Positions 47,359 to 59,917 of a stretch of 64,000 nucleotides of DNA are shown one piece after another; position 1 is the first letter of the stretch; each line of letters opens with the position of its first letter. The position numbers and the translations under genes were made by a program. The DNA is taken from the NCBI GenBank assembly GCA_029834535.1, contig JAQMWT010000392.1, positions 31,230-95,229 of the forward strand, given 5' to 3'. The notes under the pieces were generated by a model that saw only the letters and a list, made by a program, of their open reading frames with translations, was not told where the DNA came from and did no database searches. The stretch is from Chrysophaeum taylorii (taxonomy: Eukaryota; Sar; Pelagophyceae; Pelagomonadales; Pelagomonadaceae).

Positions 47359-47745
47359 GACTGCACTTTACCCTGATCGCCGACTGCGGTTGCGATGGAG
47401 GACGGTGCCTCATGAATCCTGAGCCTTGCGAGGGCATCCGCCCTCCCGGCGTAGGTTGGCACCTATTCGCCTCCCGGGCGGGCCGGTTTGGCAGCCGGAA
47501 CGTTCGCAGTGGGTCGGGGTATGGCCGGGGGGCGAAGACGGAAGGTTATCGACGAGTTGGTTGTCAGTCACATCGCGGTCTCCTCGTCGCATGGCGACAA
47601 GCTTGATGGTCACCCTCCGCCGACCGACCTTTCGGCGCTCCTCGTCTAAAGGCCCGTGATTCCGGACTGGCTCCTGTCGGTCCGGCCTGGCTCCCATGCT
47701 CGGGAGAGGTCTGAAATTAGTTAAGTTAGTTAGACTGCACTTTAC
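47359..47745 (+). mobile_element. 5'-truncated LINE 3' end inserted into Copia integrase
   Basis: The insertion at 47372-47732 is flanked by a 13 bp target-site duplication GACTGCACTTTAC (47359 and 47733). It ends with CCTGGCTCCCATGCTCGGGA and the tail TTAGTTAAGTTAGTTAG, the same 3' block as at 16410 and 17927 but on the plus strand. Removing it rejoins the Copia frame at the Cys-Cys-His region, so the LINE came after the Copia. Confidence 0.85.
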
Positions 47746-50849: not shown

Positions 50850-51348
50850 CTAACTATCTGGCTCTCTTGTTACATGGAAGTCCAAGCTTCAACCTATAAC
50901 AGCTATTTCCACTCGTGAGAGTGAACTTATTGCTCTCAATACTTGCGCTGATGATGTGGTTTGGTTGCGTAAATTGATGACGGAAATGGCCTTCGCGATA
51001 AATCCTCGATACTATCTCCGCCAACCTTAAGGAAAAGATCTGCTGCTGGATTATGATGCCCACGACAATCCACTACCGTCGGATATGTCGCTCATCCGCA
51101 ACAGTCCTGTCCTTGGTGATTCTGCTTCTGCTATTCATTTGTCAAATAATCCTAACAGTGCTACTAAAGCCAAAGCCATCAGCACCCGCTGGTTCCGCAT
51201 ACGCGACTATGTTCAGCTTAAACGTATCAGGCTGCACCATATTTCTGGCACACATAATGCTGCCGACGGTTTTACAAAGCCCCTTGGTGCTCCCCTCTTT
51301 TCAACCTTTCGCACTCTGCTTGGTGTGGCGGCAACTCCTGACCGCTAA
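50850..51348 (+). pseudogene. Copia element 1: RNase H
   Basis: LGDSASAIHLSNNPNSATKA, then STRWFRIRDYVQLKRIRLHH and GTHNAADGFTKPLG match the C-terminal RNase H of Copia elements (D..A..L, RxxxxRe, ADxxTKpL). The preceding part is in another frame (WKSKLQPITA, then RESELIALN at 50870-50940). Confidence 0.8.
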
Positions 51349-51399
51349 GGCTTACCCCCCCCCTCTCAAGGCCTGATACCCGTTCAACGGAACGGCTTT

Positions 51400-52075
51400 T
51401 CATACTTTCCTAGTGACGTCACACCTCTCCCTCGAGAGAAGCGTATCTTGCAGCATTCTTGTAGCATTCTTGCTATCATAAACCACCTCTCCATCCTTAA
51501 GTTGAGAGGCTTGATGAGCGTGAGCAAGGTGTGTGGCGAGCATAACCGACCCCGAGTCCGTGTTTGCCTCGTTCAGTGAGGTCTAGGGCGAGTCGGTGAG
51601 AACCCCCTTTGTCATCCGGGGGTCGGGAGTGTTTTTCTGTGCCGCCATACGTGGTGGAGGATATGAGATTGCGCGACTATGTCGGTCGCCAACGAACGAG
51701 TGCCCCGCACGCACTGTAATACGTGGTCCGGATTTGCACGCGTGCCCTGATCAAGCACGCGGAGTTCCAGCGGACCGACTTGCGTTGAGAATATACGCGG
51801 ATTTTGTTTCGTTCGTGCGTCCCGAGAGACGACGAACACGCGTGCGAGTTGGAAATCGCAGCGCATTCACCCGGGATTGATTTTGGTATAGCTGAACGGC
51901 GGAAGATGCTAGCGAGTGGGATCGCTACCCACGGGCATTTCTGGATTGCCAGCGGACGAGAACTCCGTGAGTGCTGTTTTGACAGCGACAGACCGCGCTG
52001 TTGTGAGCGACGTGCATTACTTCGAGTGATCGAATCCGGAACTGGTTCGAGATTCCTCATCGACATTGATATAAT
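51400..52075. promoter_or_regulatory. Leader/putative LTR region of Gypsy element 2
   Basis: GC-rich, without ORFs, between Copia RNase H and the gag ATG at 52076. TGACGTCA lies at 51413. LTR ends and primer-binding site could not be set because the 3' LTR is not in the window. Confidence 0.35.
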
Positions 52076-53590
52076 ATGGAAGAAGACGCAGACGTGCGTG
52101 AGGGAGGATCTCCTCCAGTGCTTCCCGCCGCCACTGAGATAGGCCGCGAGGAAGGTGAATTACGAGAGGCCGAGGCAGTCGACGTTACCGAATTGCCCCA
52201 TGAGGCGCCTCCAGATACCGCAATTTTTTCGCCGTTGAGTCCAACGACCCCGGACCGTGGCGAGCGTGTTACTATTGAGCGCGGATCCTTAACTCGAAGT
52301 CGACTTCGTGAAGACCTCGAGCGGAGACGGCGCGAAAACGAACGACTAGCTGAGCGATTTGCCCGTGAAAGGGCTGAAGCTAAGGAAGAAGCGGCTCGAC
52401 AAGAGCTCAACATGCTGAATGAAGCGTTGCGGCAAGAGCTCGAAACAACGAGGACCTTACGTGAGGAGGTTGAACGACTTCGTCGTGAGCGAGACGAATT
52501 AGCAGCCGAACGTGCGCGTCGTGAGGGCAGCCGTGAACGACCCGTGAGTCGGCCCGAACCGGAAACACCCGCGAGGCGGCCTGGACCGGAAAGGAGCACT
52601 GAAACGGGGGATGAACCTCCGCCCCGAGTCGATACGGAGACTGAGGGTAGGGCGGAAACTGAAGATGAATGTGCGAAATTGTTACGGGGATTATCGCAGA
52701 CGTTTGCGGACGCCTTCGAGAAGGCCTACTTGGGCCGATCTCGTCGCCCCACTTCCCGTTTGAAGGCTGACAACTTTAAACTCGCCATCGACGGCCAAGA
52801 TCAACGGCAGTTTGATCTGGATTCGGTAGCGGTGATGCATACTTTGGCAGACGACCATTACTCGGTCGAGAAATTACGTTACTTATTACCGGTGCATTTA
52901 CGCGATACCGTTGCACCAATTTTCGAGGAGCATGTGCGGAAATACGAAGAGCTGTGCGATGAGCTGCCGCACGGTCCGTCATTTTATTTGAAATTGGACG
53001 ACGAAGAGCATGGAGCCGCGATTCGGCGCCTCCGTCGTCTTAACAGAACTTCCTGTGATCGAGTTTTGAATTATTTTAGATCGATTGCCGACCTCCGAGC
53101 ACGCAGCAGGAGCTGCTCGATAAGCGGCGGAAGGTCACTCAGTCTTCGGTTCCGAAGAAGACTGCGGAGCGACACGTACAAACATATTGTACCAAGTTCC
53201 AGAACGAGGCGCTTGCCTTTTGTACCAAGTCCAACCGCACGATGGATGACGTTGATATCATCGATCAGCTTATAATCGGTTTGGCGTCCAAGGATTTACG
53301 GAGCCGTATGCGGACTATGAGGAGTGGTCACCCGGATAGCTACGTTACTTTACGTCGACGGTGGAGCTCATTATGAGACTTGAGAACGACTTTCGGATGT
53401 TGATGGAGGAGGAAAAAGATCAGGGACCCTCCAATCCGAAACCGAATAAACGGCCGCGAGGGCGGGGAGGTCGAGCCATGGGCTCCGATCAACAAGCTAA
53501 GCAAGATGCGGATAAACCGTCTGGAAATACGGTCCCGCTGATCTTACGAGATCAGTTTTGGTGGTGTAAGAAGACGTGCAAGGAGTGCTG
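52076..53590 (+). pseudogene. Gypsy element 2: gag
   Basis: MEEDADVREGGSPPVLPAAT begins at a clear ATG. Residues ~75-155 are a long Arg/Glu coiled coil (RRRRENERLAERFARERAEA). Then follows a gag core (LKADNFKLAIDGQDQRQFDL; KLRYLLPVHLRDTVAPIFEE), continuing after a frameshift near 53090 (HVQTYCTKFQNEALAFCTKS; IDQLIIGLASKDLRSRM). A C-terminal Cys cluster (FWWCKKTCKEC) ends at a TGA at 53589. Confidence 0.7.
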
Positions 53591-54357
53591 ATACTTCTGG
53601 TGCACCCATGATGAAGACGAACACGGAAGTCGCGTGGTTTACAACCGCGATCCGGACCGTTATCACTGTGCGATGTGGAAGCGCATTCGGAAACACAAAG
53701 AGCGACCCACATCACGTTCCGCTTGGGAGAAGCGTGACGATGCATCTAATGCGCACGCTACGCGCGGATCGGAACCTGCTACCGAGATTCAAACGGCCCT
53801 CACCGAGCTTGGAACCACAATGGCGACCATAGTGAGCGAGGTCAGAGGCATCAAAGATAGCAAGTCTTTCTTCTACACGACAGCGAGACGGACGGTCACC
53901 TTCTAGACGATCGTCGCGCCGACGCCGAAGTAAGAGCCCTGATCAAAAGGCCAATAGTCCTACATCCAGTCCGAGCCCCCGCCGTCGCCGCCATAGCCGG
54001 TGTTCTAGTCGCAATTCGCGCCGGCGCAGACGTCATCGGCAGCGCGATGACGAATATGACGGAGGCCGATATCAGGACAGTTCGGGACATTCGAGCGCAA
54101 CTTTCGCGTTCCAATCTCTATGCGAAGCGCAGCCATCGTCGGGAGTTGTCTTTTACCCGACGGCGCGCCCCGCCCGAGTCTCCGATGACGTTGCCGATGC
54201 CGCTGTGACGAGCACCCATCGCTTGCAACAGGAGCGAACTACCACCGACGCTCGGATCGTTCGGTGGCCTTCTACATCGTATGTGGAAGCAATATCAGAT
54301 GAAGCTTTGGATTCTCCGCGCTAATGGGAAGACTCAGACTCGGAGACCGACGAACCC
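53591..54357 (+). pseudogene. Gypsy element 2: Cys/His-rich and Arg/Ser-rich segment
   Basis: Continues after the TGA with YFWCTHDEDEH and DRYHCAMWKRIRK, so the Cys/His residues on both sides of the stop may form one zinc-binding domain. Then, in another frame, an RS-rich region (SPSRRSSRRRRSKSPDQK; SPRRRRHSRCSSRNSRRRRR) suited to nucleic-acid binding or nuclear targeting. Confidence 0.5.
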
Positions 54358-55610
54358 GTGCCGCAGGTTCCAGTGTCCCCCCGTTCGTCAATGTGCATGT
54401 CTTGCAGGGAAGTTCACGACGACGATGTTAGACCTTTTGAGCTGACGTCGGGGACGACGTCTTCTTTTCCTACGGCCCCCCTCGAAACGGTTTTAGCCGA
54501 TGTTTTAGCCGATACAGTTTTGGTCGCAGCAGAGCAGACCACAGCGGCACCGATGGAGGAGAAGTGGACGGGAATGTCCGATTTGATGGACGAGAAATTG
54601 CGAAAATCGTCCGAGGAGACAAAGGAGGAAGTATATGTGCCTCCGATTGAGAAGTGTCAGGATTTGTTGCCAGCGAAACTTGGGAATGAGGAAGCAGCCG
54701 AGGCGCCGAGCCCACCCGAGGTTGCGATGGAAAAAGAGAGAGAGCCACCAGACAAAGAGACCGCGGCGAACGCCAATATAGGTCCAGAGGTGAGACGCGC
54801 GACGCCAGATATGGCAGCGGTGACGATGCAGATGCTGGGCGATGCGAAACCGGAGGCACGATACCATCATGCACTTCCGCCGCGCGATCGGGAAAAGATC
54901 GAGCAAGACCTCATCACCATCGGTTGTCTGGACCCTGGCACACTTACATCCATAGTTGGACATATTTACAGACGACGAGACGGGCCGAAGTTCGCAGCGA
55001 CTTTAGGCGCTGATGGAATGGCTGATGTCTCCTATATTTGTCGTGGGATGGTCGACAAACTGGCGAAGGATCATATAATCCTCGACCGAGGCGATCTCCC
55101 AGTCGAGCGCACCCTGTACGGGTCAGGATTGAATAAGGCGACTATCCACAAATGGGTCGCATTGCGAATTGCGCTCGCGGACGACGTGGCAGTCCCAGTG
55201 GCTGCCATAGTGGCCGATACTAATCACCTATTTATGCTCGGAGCGCGCGATATTCGATTGCTGGGAGCCATAGTGGACTACCCGCGAAATCGCATTGCGT
55301 TTCTCCGCACACAAGTCGCTTATGGGCGCAGGAAGTTAAAGGTGCAGGATCGACGAGTCGATTCTCCGATTTTGACGTTCAGATCAACTTATGATGAGCG
55401 CAGCCCCGTGGTAGTTCAGGTCTATGGGCAACAGCACCATGCGATGCAAAAGAGCCTGAGCACAGTTGAGGACCGAGTTACGCTCGCTTGTGCAAGATTG
55501 AACACCTCCAGCGTCCACCGCCGAAACGAGCGGCAGCTTCGACGACTTGGGGAGTCCCCACAGTTACGCCTTCTCAAAGCTCGAACAGCGATGCCCATGA
55601 AGTGGTAGCC
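54358..55610 (+). pseudogene. Gypsy element 2: retropepsin-like protease region
   Basis: An acidic linker is followed (from ~54970) by FAATLGADGMADVSYICRGM, then VERTLYGSGLNKATIHKWVA and HLFMLGARDIRLLGAIVDYP. The flanking residues fit retroviral-type aspartic proteases (DTGADVSYI, a glycine-rich strand, then iLGxDxl). The catalytic D-T/S-G is altered to D-G-M, so this copy should be inactive. Confidence 0.6.
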
Positions 55611-57352
55611 TATGCTCCGCGCACGATGAAGGTCGAGCCTGGGTGCACTTGCTGCGTGCCAGTCACTCTTTCAGAGCCCATGGAAACCGGGCAAGTTTTC
55701 GTTGCTACGTCTTCTGGATACGAGCAACTTGGGGTAGTCGATGGAATGTGTTCTTCTCCCGAGGATCACGACAAGTTCGCCGCTCGAGTGGCGATCTCCT
55801 CTACCCAGGATGTGCCGACCGTGATTACTCAAGGTGAAGTTCTCGCTTTGGGTGATATTGTTTGTTTTGATGACGAGCTGAATGTTGAGACGGTCGACGA
55901 ATTAACGAAAGACTGTGAGGCCGAATATGACAAGGCCAGCCTATCGTTTACTGTTTCGGTCGCAGGCCATCTGACTCAAGGCGGTGCTGCTCCCGAACCG
56001 AAGCTTTTGAGCTCGGTGCAGAAGGCGTCTCCTTCTGCTGATAAGGATAGGAATTCTTGTCAAGAATCCCTCGGTAACGACGCTTTCGACCGACGAACCG
56101 ACGAGGAGGAAAAGAAGTGCCGAGAGGTTACAGAAGGCGAGATTCGCCGAAGATTTGAAAATGCCCAATGGCTGCTGATCACGTATCGCAAGGTTGTGAT
56201 GCTATTTAGCGGCGCCGGAGGCAGTACTTTAGGGCTGCATCGAGCGAATGAGTTGTGCGGGACGTCGTTTCAAGTCGTCCTTGCTCTTGACTCTACAACA
56301 GCTGCCAACAAGATTCATCACAAGAATATTCCGAAGATACCTGTGGTTCAGCACACGCTCTGCGGACGATATGACACGACCCTCCGATTGATCAAGGCTT
56401 ATTTGCCTGAAGCGGAATGGTCATCGTCGATGTGTATTGCACCTCTACCTTGCGTTCGTTCAGCACTCTGCAATTTGACGTCCAGAGATGTTGGCAGCGG
56501 AGTTACGGCCACTAATTGGACGATGAAGCTGTGCAAAATGGCTGGCTTCATGATGTGGCTGATTGAACAGGAGGCGTCCATTATTTCTTATATAGCGCGC
56601 TTACACCCTTACGTGTACGTCGTCATTTTTTTTTTAATGATATCACGCCCACTTTGATGAGCTCCCGCGTGCGGTTGTTGGTCTCCAGTCAGCCACTGCA
56701 CCTGCAAGAGGCTCCGAAGACATGTGCGAACATGCAACAGAAATTGGCTGCAGCATTAGGTTACGCGGATGAACGCCACCTGCTCCAGCTGAATAATCTA
56801 GGTGCGTCCCGAGACGTAACAGATACGACTTACACCGCTGCGCGAGTTCCTCTTCGCTTTGGACCGCACCGCTCGGACACTCCGCCTTTGACTCTCAAGA
56901 TGACGGCAGAGTTGCTCACGATGCCGCTAGACGATGATTGGGATGGCCTGTCTAAGACATACTCGTTCAAGCATTTAGCGTGTGTGGTCCCTCCAGACAC
57001 TCTTGCGATTTTAGCAGTCGATCTGCACAACTCCGTGACCAGAGGTTTCCGCCAAAGTGGCGAAGTCCTGCCGACCGCGTTGAGTCCGACAGATCGATCC
57101 TCTGAGCAGTATTTGCGAATTGCGGACACCACCCTTCGTCACGTACAGATCCCGCTGTTGAATACGCGTACTCGTGTCGTTAAGTGGAAGTCGGAAGATG
57201 ATCTCCAGGATCCCACCAAATGGAAACCGCCAGAAGTACCTATGCATCCGCTTCCAACAGATGCGCCGGGGACGGCTCATGCTTCTTCCGCTGCCCCCCG
57301 ACAAAAGTGGAGGTTCCGCCAGATCCGGAACCTGAACAGGAGCCGAAAGTAA
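55611..57352 (+). CDS. Gypsy element 2: C5-cytosine DNA methyltransferase domain
   Basis: After a protease-distal segment in the frame of 55488-56657 comes the methyltransferase. Motif I is MLFSGAGGSTLGLHRA (56199 on), the AdoMet-binding loop. Motif II is LALDSTTAANKIHHKNIP. Motif IV is APLPCVRSA, with the catalytic Cys codon at 56451-56453. LIEQ near 56565 is in the place of motif VI (ENV). Near a run of ten T (56626-56635) the frame changes, and 56654 on gives QQKLAAALGYADERHLLQLN then GASRDVTDTTYTAAR, where C5 enzymes have the LGY and motif VIII (QxRxR) region. The family transfers a methyl group from AdoMet to cytosine C5 in DNA. Motifs IV (PPCQ expected) and VI are not canonical, so activity of this copy is doubtful. 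It is flanked in the same direction by protease and RT, so it belongs to the element. Confidence 0.75.
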
Positions 57353-58520
57353 GGAGCGAGCCGAATGTGCGCGTCAAAGGTGAAAGGATCAATAATAAGA
57401 GCCACCCTGAGGTGAGGTTCAAATACGAAGAAAAGTCCGATGTGCCATGGAAGGATGCGCCGCGCGACGCGGACGGTGCACCGTTACCGCAAACTCCGGA
57501 GCACGTCAAGGACATCGATGCTATGGAAGTTGAAATTCCGACGAAAGAGGAAGTCGAAAAGGTTGTTCGAGAACTGGAAATTCCCGACAACCCGCATCTG
57601 GATGAGGATGCGAAGATGATGTTGAGCCTCTGCGTGCAATGCGCGTGGGCCTTTTTTGATGCGATTATGAGACCCGTGGACTCGCCGCCGGTTTCTCTAC
57701 GATTTAAGGACGCAAACCCACGACCGATTAAGATGACACCTTATAGGTTGACGCCAGGCTCGAGTGTCTCAGAAAGCAGATCACCGAGTGGTGTCGCGAT
57801 GGAGTCATCCGACCGGCGAACTCTCCGTGGGGATTCCCTGTACTGATGCTGCCTAAGAAGGGAGCAGAGGCCGGGACGTCGAATGCTTCTCGTGCTGCAG
57901 TTGACTTGCGTCAGCTCAATGATCAGCTGGTCAATGACAGTTGGCCGAATATTCGTCAAGATGATGCTTTGGCCTTTCTTGCCACGCGCCGTTGGCGGAC
58001 GTGCATTGATATTCGATGGGGTTATCATAACCTACGTTTGGACGCCGCCGCTCAGGACGCCGTCACGATGGTTAGTCCACTTGGAGCCCATAGTTTCTTG
58101 CGCTTGCCTCTGGGAGTGAAAACAGCAGGAGCTCTCTTCTGTAAGCAGATGGCCAGCCATTTGTCCACATGGATGTATAAGGACTTGGTCGCGTTTGTCG
58201 ACGTTTTTATGATGGGATCGGATGAACTCCGCCGTCATTTACAAGTCTTGATTGAAGTGCTGTGACATTTAGCGCAGCGAGGATGTGGTGGACGAACTTC
58301 TAAGTTCCACCTCCTCAAAGATGAAATCGAGTTTCTGGGACACATTTCGACGCCGGAAGGCTTGAAGCCGAATCCCAAGACGTTAGAAGCGTTGCAACAG
58401 ATGCAGATTCCCGGTACGCTGCCGAAAACGTCGCCGAAGACCCAGATTCAATCCTTCGTCGGCATGAGCAACTACTGCCGCCGATACGTAAAGAATTATT
58501 CGAAGATTGTGGAGCCGCTG
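57353..58520 (+). pseudogene. Gypsy element 2: reverse transcriptase
   Basis: IKMTPYRLTP, then after a frameshift near 57755 RVSQ-type context and WGFPVLMLPKKG, AAVDLRQLNDQL, CIDIRWGYHNLRLDAAAQDA, SFLRLPLGVKTAGALFCKQM. The active-site strand reads LVAFVDVFMMGSDE, where active Gypsy RTs have YxDD/FxDD: the second Asp is Val. A TGA at 58263 interrupts the frame; the thumb and connection follow (KFHLLKDEIEFLGHISTPEG; IQSFVGMSNYCRRYVKNYSK). Confidence 0.8.
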
Positions 58521-59090
58521 AGGCATTGTGTCTTGAAGGTGCTAAGTTTGAGAGGACGCCTGAGTGCCAAAAGGCATTTGACACGATCATCGAAGCTTTG
58601 GTGTACTCTCGCGGAGTTTATCATCCTGACTACGATCTTCCCTTTCAGATCCGCTCGGATGCTTCCAAGGATGGTCTGGGCGCGTATCTTTTTCAGCTCG
58701 TGGAAGTCAAGGACGAAACCGGCAAGGTGACACGAGAGGAACGAGTGATTGAGTATTGGAGCCGAGCTGTGCCGAAAGAGATGCGGAACTATGAGCCCCG
58801 CCGGCTGTAGCTACTGGCAGTTATTCTTTCTCTTGAGCATTTTCGCTCTTATATTGAAGGTCACAAGACGATCCTCGAGACGGATCATCGCAATTTGAAG
58901 TTTTTACGAAAGGCGAAGCACTCGTCTGGGCAGTTGGCTCGTTGGGCGATGCGGCTCGCCAATTTCGATCCTGAATTGGGTTACAAACCAGGAAAGTCGC
59001 CGGGAATGAGTATCCCTGACTGTCTCTCTCGCAATCCTATCGATCATGTCATCGAGACGGATGAGTTTGGTGAACCCTTGAACCACGCGT
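58521..59090 (+). pseudogene. Gypsy element 2: RNase H
   Basis: After another frameshift: QIRSDASKDGLGAYLFQLVE, VIEYWSRAVPKEMRNYEPRR, a TAG at 58808, then LLAVILSLEHFRSYIEGHKT and ILETDHRNLKFLRKA. These are the DAS, SR/nYe and tDh blocks of the Gypsy RNase H. Confidence 0.8.
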
Positions 59091-59917
59091 ACCTAGTGTG
59101 CCAAGAACTTCCTCGCCCTGTCGATGATGAAGGAGTACCTTTACCTGGGTGCCATGTCATTCTGTCGTTTGTTACGACTGAGTTGCCTGTGGAGAAAGAA
59201 AAAGATGGTCGCGACGATCCGATGCAATTGGTCACGTCTCATGCTACGAGACAACGTCAGAAGCAACGTCTGCAGACCCAAGCTAGTATTTTCCGTGATG
59301 CCGATGATCACCAAGAGTACATCGACAAGATTCCGGATAATTTGACTTTGGAAGAGATAGCCAAAGAGCAGATCACTGACGCTACTTGCGAGAACATTCG
59401 TTATCGCATGGCTCAAGGCCATTCTCTTCGTCGGTACGGAGCCAGTTATCGCTATCAAGTGGTGAACGGAGTTCTCTACCGTGCCACACCTGACTTTCAC
59501 CCGATGATAGTCGCACCCCGAACTTCACGGACGCGCATCATCCGATTGTACCATGACATACCTCTCAATGGTGGTCACATGGGTCGTCAAAGTACGGTGC
59601 AGTCGACACGTGAACGCTTTTGGTGGCCCCTCATGTCTAATGAGGTGGGTGCTTATATTGCTGGTTGCATAGTGTGCAAGAAAGCTCGCACGCCTGAACC
59701 AAAGAGAGCAGGTCTTCTCCAGCAACCTGTGTATGATGGTGATTGCGCCGTCCTGTGTATGGATTTGTTCGGACCCTTGCCTAGTGCCGGTCCCGAGACG
59801 TATCTGATCATCTTTTTTGATCCATTTTCTCATTTCTTGATTCTTGACGTACTACACAATAAGACTGCTAAGTCAATCCTCGAGTCTTTTTGCGGAGCAT
59901 TTAGCAAGCAGTGGTAA
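59091..59917 (+). pseudogene. Gypsy element 2: integrase, truncated after the first catalytic Asp
   Basis: The HHCC zinc finger is present (LYHDIPLNGGHMGRQSTVQS, then WWPLMSNEVGAYIAGCIVCK). The core begins VLCMDLFGPLPSAGPETYLI, containing the first Asp, and stops at 59917 before the second Asp and the Glu. The break coincides with the border of sequence belonging to the Copia element on the minus strand; the rest may lie beyond the window. Confidence 0.8.

What the first reader, a model, noticed from the sequence alone, without database searches (positions are those of the whole stretch)
55611..57352. Gypsy retrotransposon with an embedded cytosine-5 DNA methyltransferase
Motif I (LFSGAGGSTLGL), motif II, the motif IV catalytic Cys (56451) and an LGY plus motif VIII-like segment lie between protease and reverse transcriptase of one Gypsy element, all in the same direction. 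Retrotransposons carrying C5 methyltransferases have been reported in dinoflagellates (Symbiodinium) and charophytes, where the enzyme can methylate CG sites de novo; self-methylation of the element's DNA was proposed as camouflage. A case in an algal genome of apparent stramenopile type would be a separate acquisition. This copy is damaged; related copies elsewhere in the genome could be intact.
Basis: partly seen in the sequence, partly recalled or inferred. Interest (0 to 1): 0.92.

Follow-up and report, generated by a model that had tools for sequence, protein, structure and literature searches.

The report
Retrotransposons carrying DNA-methylating enzymes
In this alga's genome two different families of jumping genes carry, in many copies, a built-in relative of the enzymes that cells use to mark and silence DNA, and selection has kept that part in shape.

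Summary
Confirmed, and larger than reported. The window holds a damaged Gypsy LTR retrotransposon (about 51,324-59,890, +; 3' end missing) with a C5 cytosine methyltransferase (DNMT) domain, motifs I to X, at 56,166-57,187, between a protease-like segment and reverse transcriptase. This copy changes frame near 56,630 and its motif IV reads PLPC instead of SPPC. It is not a one-off: two capped searches show at least 174 places with the domain; two copies lie in single open frames of 3,063 and 3,067 codons, and one of them has 98% identical LTRs. Catalytic residues (GxGG, SPPC, motif VI Glu, RxR) are conserved and Ka/Ks is 0.07 between subfamilies. The nearest relatives found are a DNMT of the yellow-green alga Tribonema and DNMT domains in two unnamed proteins. 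Unexpectedly, a second family, Copia-type (at least 90 places), carries a different DNMT-like domain between protease-like segment and integrase. The kind is known from dinoflagellates and Klebsormidium; DNMT lineage, architecture, host and the two parallel captures make this a new variant. Most likely the enzyme methylates the element's own cDNA or new insertion; that step is inferred: CpG is not depleted in the Gypsy copies and no methylation data were available.

The parts
51324..59890 (+). Gypsy LTR retrotransposon copy, 5' end present, 3' end missing
   Evidence: blastn of related copies L019, L020, L022, L025 onto the window
51324..51660 (+). 5' LTR (start matched; end is an estimate from the length of the LTR of another copy)
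   Evidence: LTR of the C5 copy matches at 51,324-51,358 and 51,475-51,509; 3' end of L019 matches 51,324-51,430
52076..53275 (+). N-terminal, gag-like coding part (no Pfam family over its cut-off)
54358..55608 (+). frame with a retropepsin-like segment (DGMADVSYI ... LLGARDIRLLGAIVDY, judged by eye; no Pfam match)
56166..57187 (+). C5 DNMT domain, in two frames (56,166-56,630 and 56,633-57,187)
56205..56237 (+). motif I, FSGAGGSTLGL
56451..56453 (+). motif IV Cys codon (context APLPC here, ASPPC in 13 of 14 aligned copies)
56565..56567 (+). motif VI Glu of IEQE (by register with L020 E135)
56660..56674 (+). motif VIII equivalent, SSRVR (by register with L020)
56984..56995 (+). motif X equivalent, VVPP (by register with L020)
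57846..58265 (+). reverse transcriptase (RVT_1, E 8.9e-7)
58526..58810 (+). RNase H (RT_RNaseH_2, RT_RNaseH)
58895..59917 (+). integrase frame: zinc-binding domain (Integrase_H2C2) and the beginning of the core; element sequence ends at 59,890

Best explanation
A Gypsy LTR retrotransposon family carries a C5 cytosine methyltransferase as a regular Pol domain, in the order protease-like, DNMT, RT, RNase H, integrase (shown by sequence). The polyprotein is probably cut by its protease, so that the DNMT goes with RT into the particle or pre-integration complex and methylates cytosines of the new cDNA or of the fresh insertion (inferred). The marks would make the newcomer look like resident DNA, or seed methylation that the host's DNMT5-like enzyme copies on (inferred; substrate and sequence context unknown). 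The window copy is a dead, truncated member. A second, Copia-type family has taken up a different DNMT-like domain. The confidence given is for the whole statement; that the domain is a DNMT homologue and a regular part of the family I hold at about 0.97.
For: Homology: P0001 at E 2.6e-10 in a search of 5.8 billion proteins, P0003 of Tribonema at E 2.9e-14, 29% over 297 columns. Invariant GxGG, motif II Asp, SPPC, motif VI Glu and RxR in an alignment of two Gypsy domains with P0001-P0004 and host DNMT2. Foldseek's first 14 of 29 hits at E 0.001 or better are C5 MTases. At least 174 places. Single frames of 3,063 and 3,067 codons from DNMT to rve. LTR pair 98.2% identical. Ka/Ks 0.073 between subfamilies for the DNMT, 0.026 for RT. 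Host DNMT2-like, DNMT5-like and SRA proteins. Activity of comparable retrotransposon DNMTs on CG in yeast is published for SymbioDIRS (PMC5890265, part 3 read).
Confidence: 0.55

Rival explanations
1. The domain methylates RNA (element RNA or primer tRNA), to stabilise the genomic RNA or to help packaging or priming.
For: Foldseek's best hits are DNMT2 chains and VIA-align ranks RNA methyltransferases first; CpG is not depleted. RNA as a target was also raised in PMC5890265 for SymbioLINE.
Against: By sequence it groups with the Tribonema DNMT and not with host DNMT2 (long branches); the fold ranking covers the common core only.
Confidence: 0.2
2. The domain binds SAM or DNA but does not methylate; it serves the pre-integration complex or target choice.
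For: Weak match to PF00145 and a divergent C-terminal half; motif VI reads IEQE rather than ENV.
Against: Cys, motif VI Glu and RxR are kept across two Gypsy subfamilies and their distant relatives, which a mere binding role would hardly need.
Confidence: 0.15
3. The DNMT limits the element's own expression by marking new copies for silencing, so that the host tolerates it.
For: High copy number in a genome of about 71 Mb; a DNMT5-like enzyme and an SRA protein are there to keep marks.
Against: No methylation or expression data; CpG not depleted.
Confidence: 0.09
4. Chance insertion of a host DNMT gene into this one copy.
For: Only that the window copy is damaged.
Against: At least 174 places, single frames with RT in two copies, purifying selection.
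Confidence: 0.01

Closest known systems
KnitGypsy-Dnmt3 of Klebsormidium nitens (PMC5890265; parts 1-4 of 7 read)
   Same: C5 DNMT inside the Pol frame of a Gypsy-type element, many copies, purifying selection
   Different: There the DNMT is a Dnmt3 and the repeats are arranged as in DIRS. Here plain direct LTRs, and a domain whose nearest relatives found are a Tribonema DNMT and P0001/P0002; no Dnmt3 sequence was compared directly.
SymbioLINE-Dnmt and SymbioDIRS-Dnmt3 of Symbiodinium (PMC5890265)
   Same: Retrotransposon-borne DNMTs in high copy number in an alga; the DIRS ones methylate CG in yeast
   Different: LINE and DIRS, not LTR Gypsy or Copia; the paper says Copia of Symbiodinium lacks a DNMT
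DNMT-bearing 'LTR Copia and DIRS' elements mentioned in PMC12344493 (one passage seen)
   Same: Mentions DNMT3 members in Copia elements
   Different: Attributed to streptophytes and dinoflagellates, citing the 2018 paper, which calls the streptophyte one Gypsy; no stramenopile in the passages seen
P0003, DNMT of Tribonema minus
   Same: 29% identity over 297 columns, motif VI as IEQ
   Different: A 296-aa protein on a long contig, without other domains
P0001 and P0002, unnamed ENA proteins
   Same: Related DNMT with IPVVQHTL and ASPPC (P0001)
   Different: P0002 has a weak GIY-YIG match; P0001 has an RT-like stretch seen only by eye; not Gypsy

Membership tests
C5 cytosine methyltransferase (Gypsy domain) | motif I FxGxGG, motif IV PPC, motif VI Glu, motif VIII RxR, motif X, in order | tested here: met
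   (copies other than the window's)
C5 cytosine methyltransferase (Gypsy domain) | Pfam PF00145 over its cut-off | tested here: not met
   16-19 bits, cut-off 22; the relatives P0001, P0003 and P0004 are over it, P0002 is not
C5 cytosine methyltransferase (Gypsy domain) | class I methyltransferase fold of the C5 type | tested here: inconclusive
   N-terminal half fits; C-terminal half modelled with low confidence; RNA MTases rank higher by VIA-align
C5 cytosine methyltransferase (Gypsy domain) | methylates cytosine in DNA | not testable with these tools
   needs an assay
Ty3/Gypsy LTR retrotransposon | RT and RNase H followed by integrase in one Pol frame | tested here: met
   L026, L027
Ty3/Gypsy LTR retrotransposon | direct LTRs with TG...CA ends | tested here: met
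   one copy tested in full: 341/340 bp, 98.2%, TGTGGCGG...CGCCACA; window copy has no 3' LTR
Ty3/Gypsy LTR retrotransposon | target-site duplication | tested here: not met
   not seen at the flanks of the one copy inspected (by eye)
KnitGypsy-Dnmt3 | DNMT of the Dnmt3 class | tested here: inconclusive
   groups with Tribonema DNMT, but no Dnmt3 was in the tree
KnitGypsy-Dnmt3 | DIRS-like split repeats | tested here: not met
   direct LTR pair in the C5 copy
Ty1/Copia LTR retrotransposon (second family) | RVT_2 with integrase core before RT | tested here: met
   L033: RVT_2 E 1.6e-38, rve upstream but under its cut-off (17.2 of 32.6 bits); L034: RVT_2 E 9.5e-28; other loci not tested for RVT_2
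C5 cytosine methyltransferase (Copia domain) | Pfam PF00145 over its cut-off | tested here: met
   30-46 bits in L003-L010, L033, L034, L037, over model positions about 20-173 only
C5 cytosine methyltransferase (Copia domain) | all motifs I to X | tested here: inconclusive
   PCQ, ENV and one Arg of motif VIII kept in the 7 aligned copies, motif I degenerate, motif X not recognised (by eye)

The most novel reading that the evidence does not exclude
The host's own DNMTs found here are only DNMT2-like and DNMT5-like (DNMT5 maintains but does not start methylation in Cryptococcus, as PMC10538959 cites). Two different LTR families would then supply the de novo step: each took up its own DNMT, marks its new copies, and DNMT5 perpetuates the marks, so that the parasites write part of the host methylome.
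Probability: 0.2. Interest if true: 0.92.

Novelty: new variant of a known kind. Interest (0 to 1): 0.74.

Why it matters
Retrotransposons that carry the class of enzyme used to silence them were described from two lineages. A further host with two captures side by side, in Gypsy and in Copia, suggests that the combination is favoured again and again and therefore does something. Many copies with open frames in a genome of about 71 Mb make it testable: do young copies carry methylation, in which context, and does the domain write it?

Tried and rejected
Motif VI first read as VNF (Glu lost; my notebook entry still says so): rejected. Pairwise alignments with gaps suggested it, and for the stretch against P0001 the gapped version even scores a little better than the gapless one (46 against 38). 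The alignment with Tribonema and others makes E135 of IEQE the motif VI Glu, with IEQV in Tribonema, and the better model puts it in a strand, residues 131-137. Spacing from Cys to Glu (38) and Glu to motif VIII (30) equals that of P0001 (6 of 14 rows measured correctly there; in the others my script caught a different LIE or SPPC).

First model: pLDDT 30, not used.

Stand-alone donor gene in this genome: none seen in the lists; all are capped, so it is not excluded.

DNMT-free Gypsy relatives: of 87 RT places (87 of 1,559 candidates scored), 47 have a listed DNMT within 3 kb upstream. Six more (C201, C99, C648, C11, C206, C668) have one in the list, noticed by eye. Of the 40 without one, 5 were read: 4 carry the domain, one is an internal deletion. 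The rest were not read.

PDB by sequence: no match at E 0.01 for the Gypsy or the Copia profile. Profile comparison of the Gypsy domain with Copia and with host DNMT5, and of Copia with host DNMT2: nothing (very shallow profiles). IMG/VR: no relatives confirmed. Protein search with the Copia domain: none of 521 candidates.

The host: SSU search failed twice for technical reasons; a pattern search found one SSU of bacterial type beside a permuted mitochondrial 5S, so no species is named.

Tree: Copia joins host DNMT5 at 57/88, flagged as long branches meeting; no conclusion drawn.

Full report
What is in the window. Frames on the + strand between 52,076 and 59,917 give RVT_1, RNase H and Integrase_H2C2. 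Comparison with other copies shows that the element starts with its LTR near 51,324 and breaks off at 59,890; the domain changes frame near 56,630 and has APLPC where 13 of 14 aligned copies have ASPPC. By sequence this copy is dead.

The family. The segment matches 106 places in a first capped search (107 rows, one short second row dropped) and 119 in a second one with another subfamily as bait: together 174 distinct places, a lower bound. Two main subfamilies are, for the most part, 82-93% and 66-69% identical to the window copy over the segment, with a few in between. Two copies on contig C5 lie in single open frames of 3,063 and 3,067 codons with DNMT, RVT_1, RNase H, Integrase_H2C2 and rve in order. 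The first has LTRs of 341 and 340 bp, 98.2% identical, 10.28 kb from end to end; no target-site duplication was seen. Most other copies are broken to some degree. Of 87 RT places, 47 have the domain within 3 kb upstream in the lists; of the other 40, 5 were read and 4 of these carry it, the fifth being a deletion.

Selection. Among 13 open copies (14 aligned; L018 dropped for its length) Ka/Ks of the domain is 0.19 (15 pairs) and 0.21 (21 pairs) within subfamilies and 0.073 between them (42 pairs). RT was intact in 6 of the 14; between subfamilies it gives 0.026 (8 pairs). Ks between subfamilies is about 1.7, near saturation; the C-terminal half of the domain gave no estimate; and copies were chosen for open frames. 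The domain is kept, less strictly than RT.

Second family. The PF00145 search found 57 matches (123 of 474 candidates scored). Two are host genes: a DNMT2-like protein (L001) beside a chlorophyll-binding protein gene, and a DNMT with SNF2 in the same 2,086-codon frame, so DNMT5-like (L002, L049). The 14 others that I looked at (L003-L010, L033-L038) share one further domain type. L033 and L034 carry RVT_2 (E 1.6e-38 and 9.5e-28), so the family is Copia; the DNMT-like domain lies between a protease-like segment (DGGA, by eye) and the integrase. PCQ and ENV are kept, motif I is degenerate and motif X was not recognised. Ka/Ks is 0.13 (10 pairs of 5 copies; two of the 7 aligned left out for their lengths). 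A search with it gave 98 rows, 90 distinct places (90 of 736 candidates scored); 36 of the 55 non-host PF00145 places are among them. L036 has a direct repeat of about 195 bp, 96.5% identical, 8.9 kb apart, a candidate LTR pair without TG...CA ends. The two DNMTs show no close kinship.

Does methylation show? CpG observed/expected is 1.15-1.36 in 8 Gypsy loci, 1.01-1.03 in 3 Copia loci, 1.26 and 1.46 in two host loci, 1.16 in the window; these are whole 10-kb stretches, flanks included. No depletion in Gypsy; Copia is lower than the host loci. This neither shows nor excludes self-methylation. The genome also has one SRA-domain match.

Compared with print. PMC5890265 (parts 1-4 of 7 read) describes DNMTs in Symbiodinium LINE and DIRS elements and in a Klebsormidium Gypsy with DIRS-like repeats, says that Symbiodinium Copia lacks a DNMT, and shows CG methylation in yeast for the DIRS ones, not for the LINE and Gypsy ones. 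PMC12344493 (passages) mentions DNMT3 in 'LTR Copia and DIRS' elements of streptophytes and dinoflagellates, which does not agree with the Gypsy label of 2018. PMC6338049 (passages) says in general that adenine- and cytosine-methylase retrotransposons of Gypsy and DIRS type occur in groups including stramenopiles. PMC12477816 (passages) has an N4C/N6A methylase in a brown-algal DNA transposon. PMC10538959 (passages) gives DNMT5 for Tribonema and a Tribonema DNMT near DNMT4; whether that one is P0003 I do not know. PMC9998398 and PMC3145265 were seen as passages. The searches listed no paper that I recognised as reporting a C5 DNMT inside a stramenopile Gypsy or Copia element; subscription papers and preprints are not held, and most listed papers were seen as titles only.

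Host. 70.8 Mb in 697 contigs, a chlorophyll-binding protein gene next to DNMT2, an organelle contig. A photosynthetic stramenopile is likely; it was not proven.

How it probably works. Shown: the domain, its place, its conservation, its selection. Inferred: release with RT by the protease, action on cDNA or the new insertion, and a benefit through looking like resident DNA or through marks for DNMT5 to copy. RNA as substrate, a non-catalytic role and self-limitation are the live rivals.

Noticed in passing
L003-L010, L033-L038: A Copia-type family with its own DNMT-like domain, at least 90 places; possibly a second capture independent of the Gypsy one.
   Followed up: partly
proteins P0001 (2034 aa) and P0002 (459 aa): Unnamed ENA proteins with a related DNMT; P0002 also has a weak GIY-YIG match and P0001 an RT-like stretch (QGGPLSG ... 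YADD, by eye), perhaps another kind of DNMT-bearing retroelement.
   Followed up: partly
L013, L015, L016, L021, near codon 192 of the DNMT: Four copies share a run with one A fewer than in L020 and the same frame change: inherited by broken copies that kept spreading, or a repeated assembly error.
   Followed up: no
window 47368-47734: 97-98% identical to stretches next to or inside the Gypsy copies L020 and L022: another mobile repeat.
   Followed up: no
L008, far 3' part: Downstream of the Copia DNMT the translation resembles the N-terminal part of the Gypsy frame (by eye): nested insertions.
   Followed up: no
G000 C405:5807, C58:34065, C114:36500, C384:24366; C225:11156 and C311:15684: P0003 or P0004 matches outside the two listed subfamilies, some in frames of 1,400-2,100 codons; possibly a third DNMT-bearing subfamily.
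   Followed up: no
G000 C594:64137: One SRA-domain match in a 909-codon frame, a possible reader of methylated DNA.
   Followed up: no
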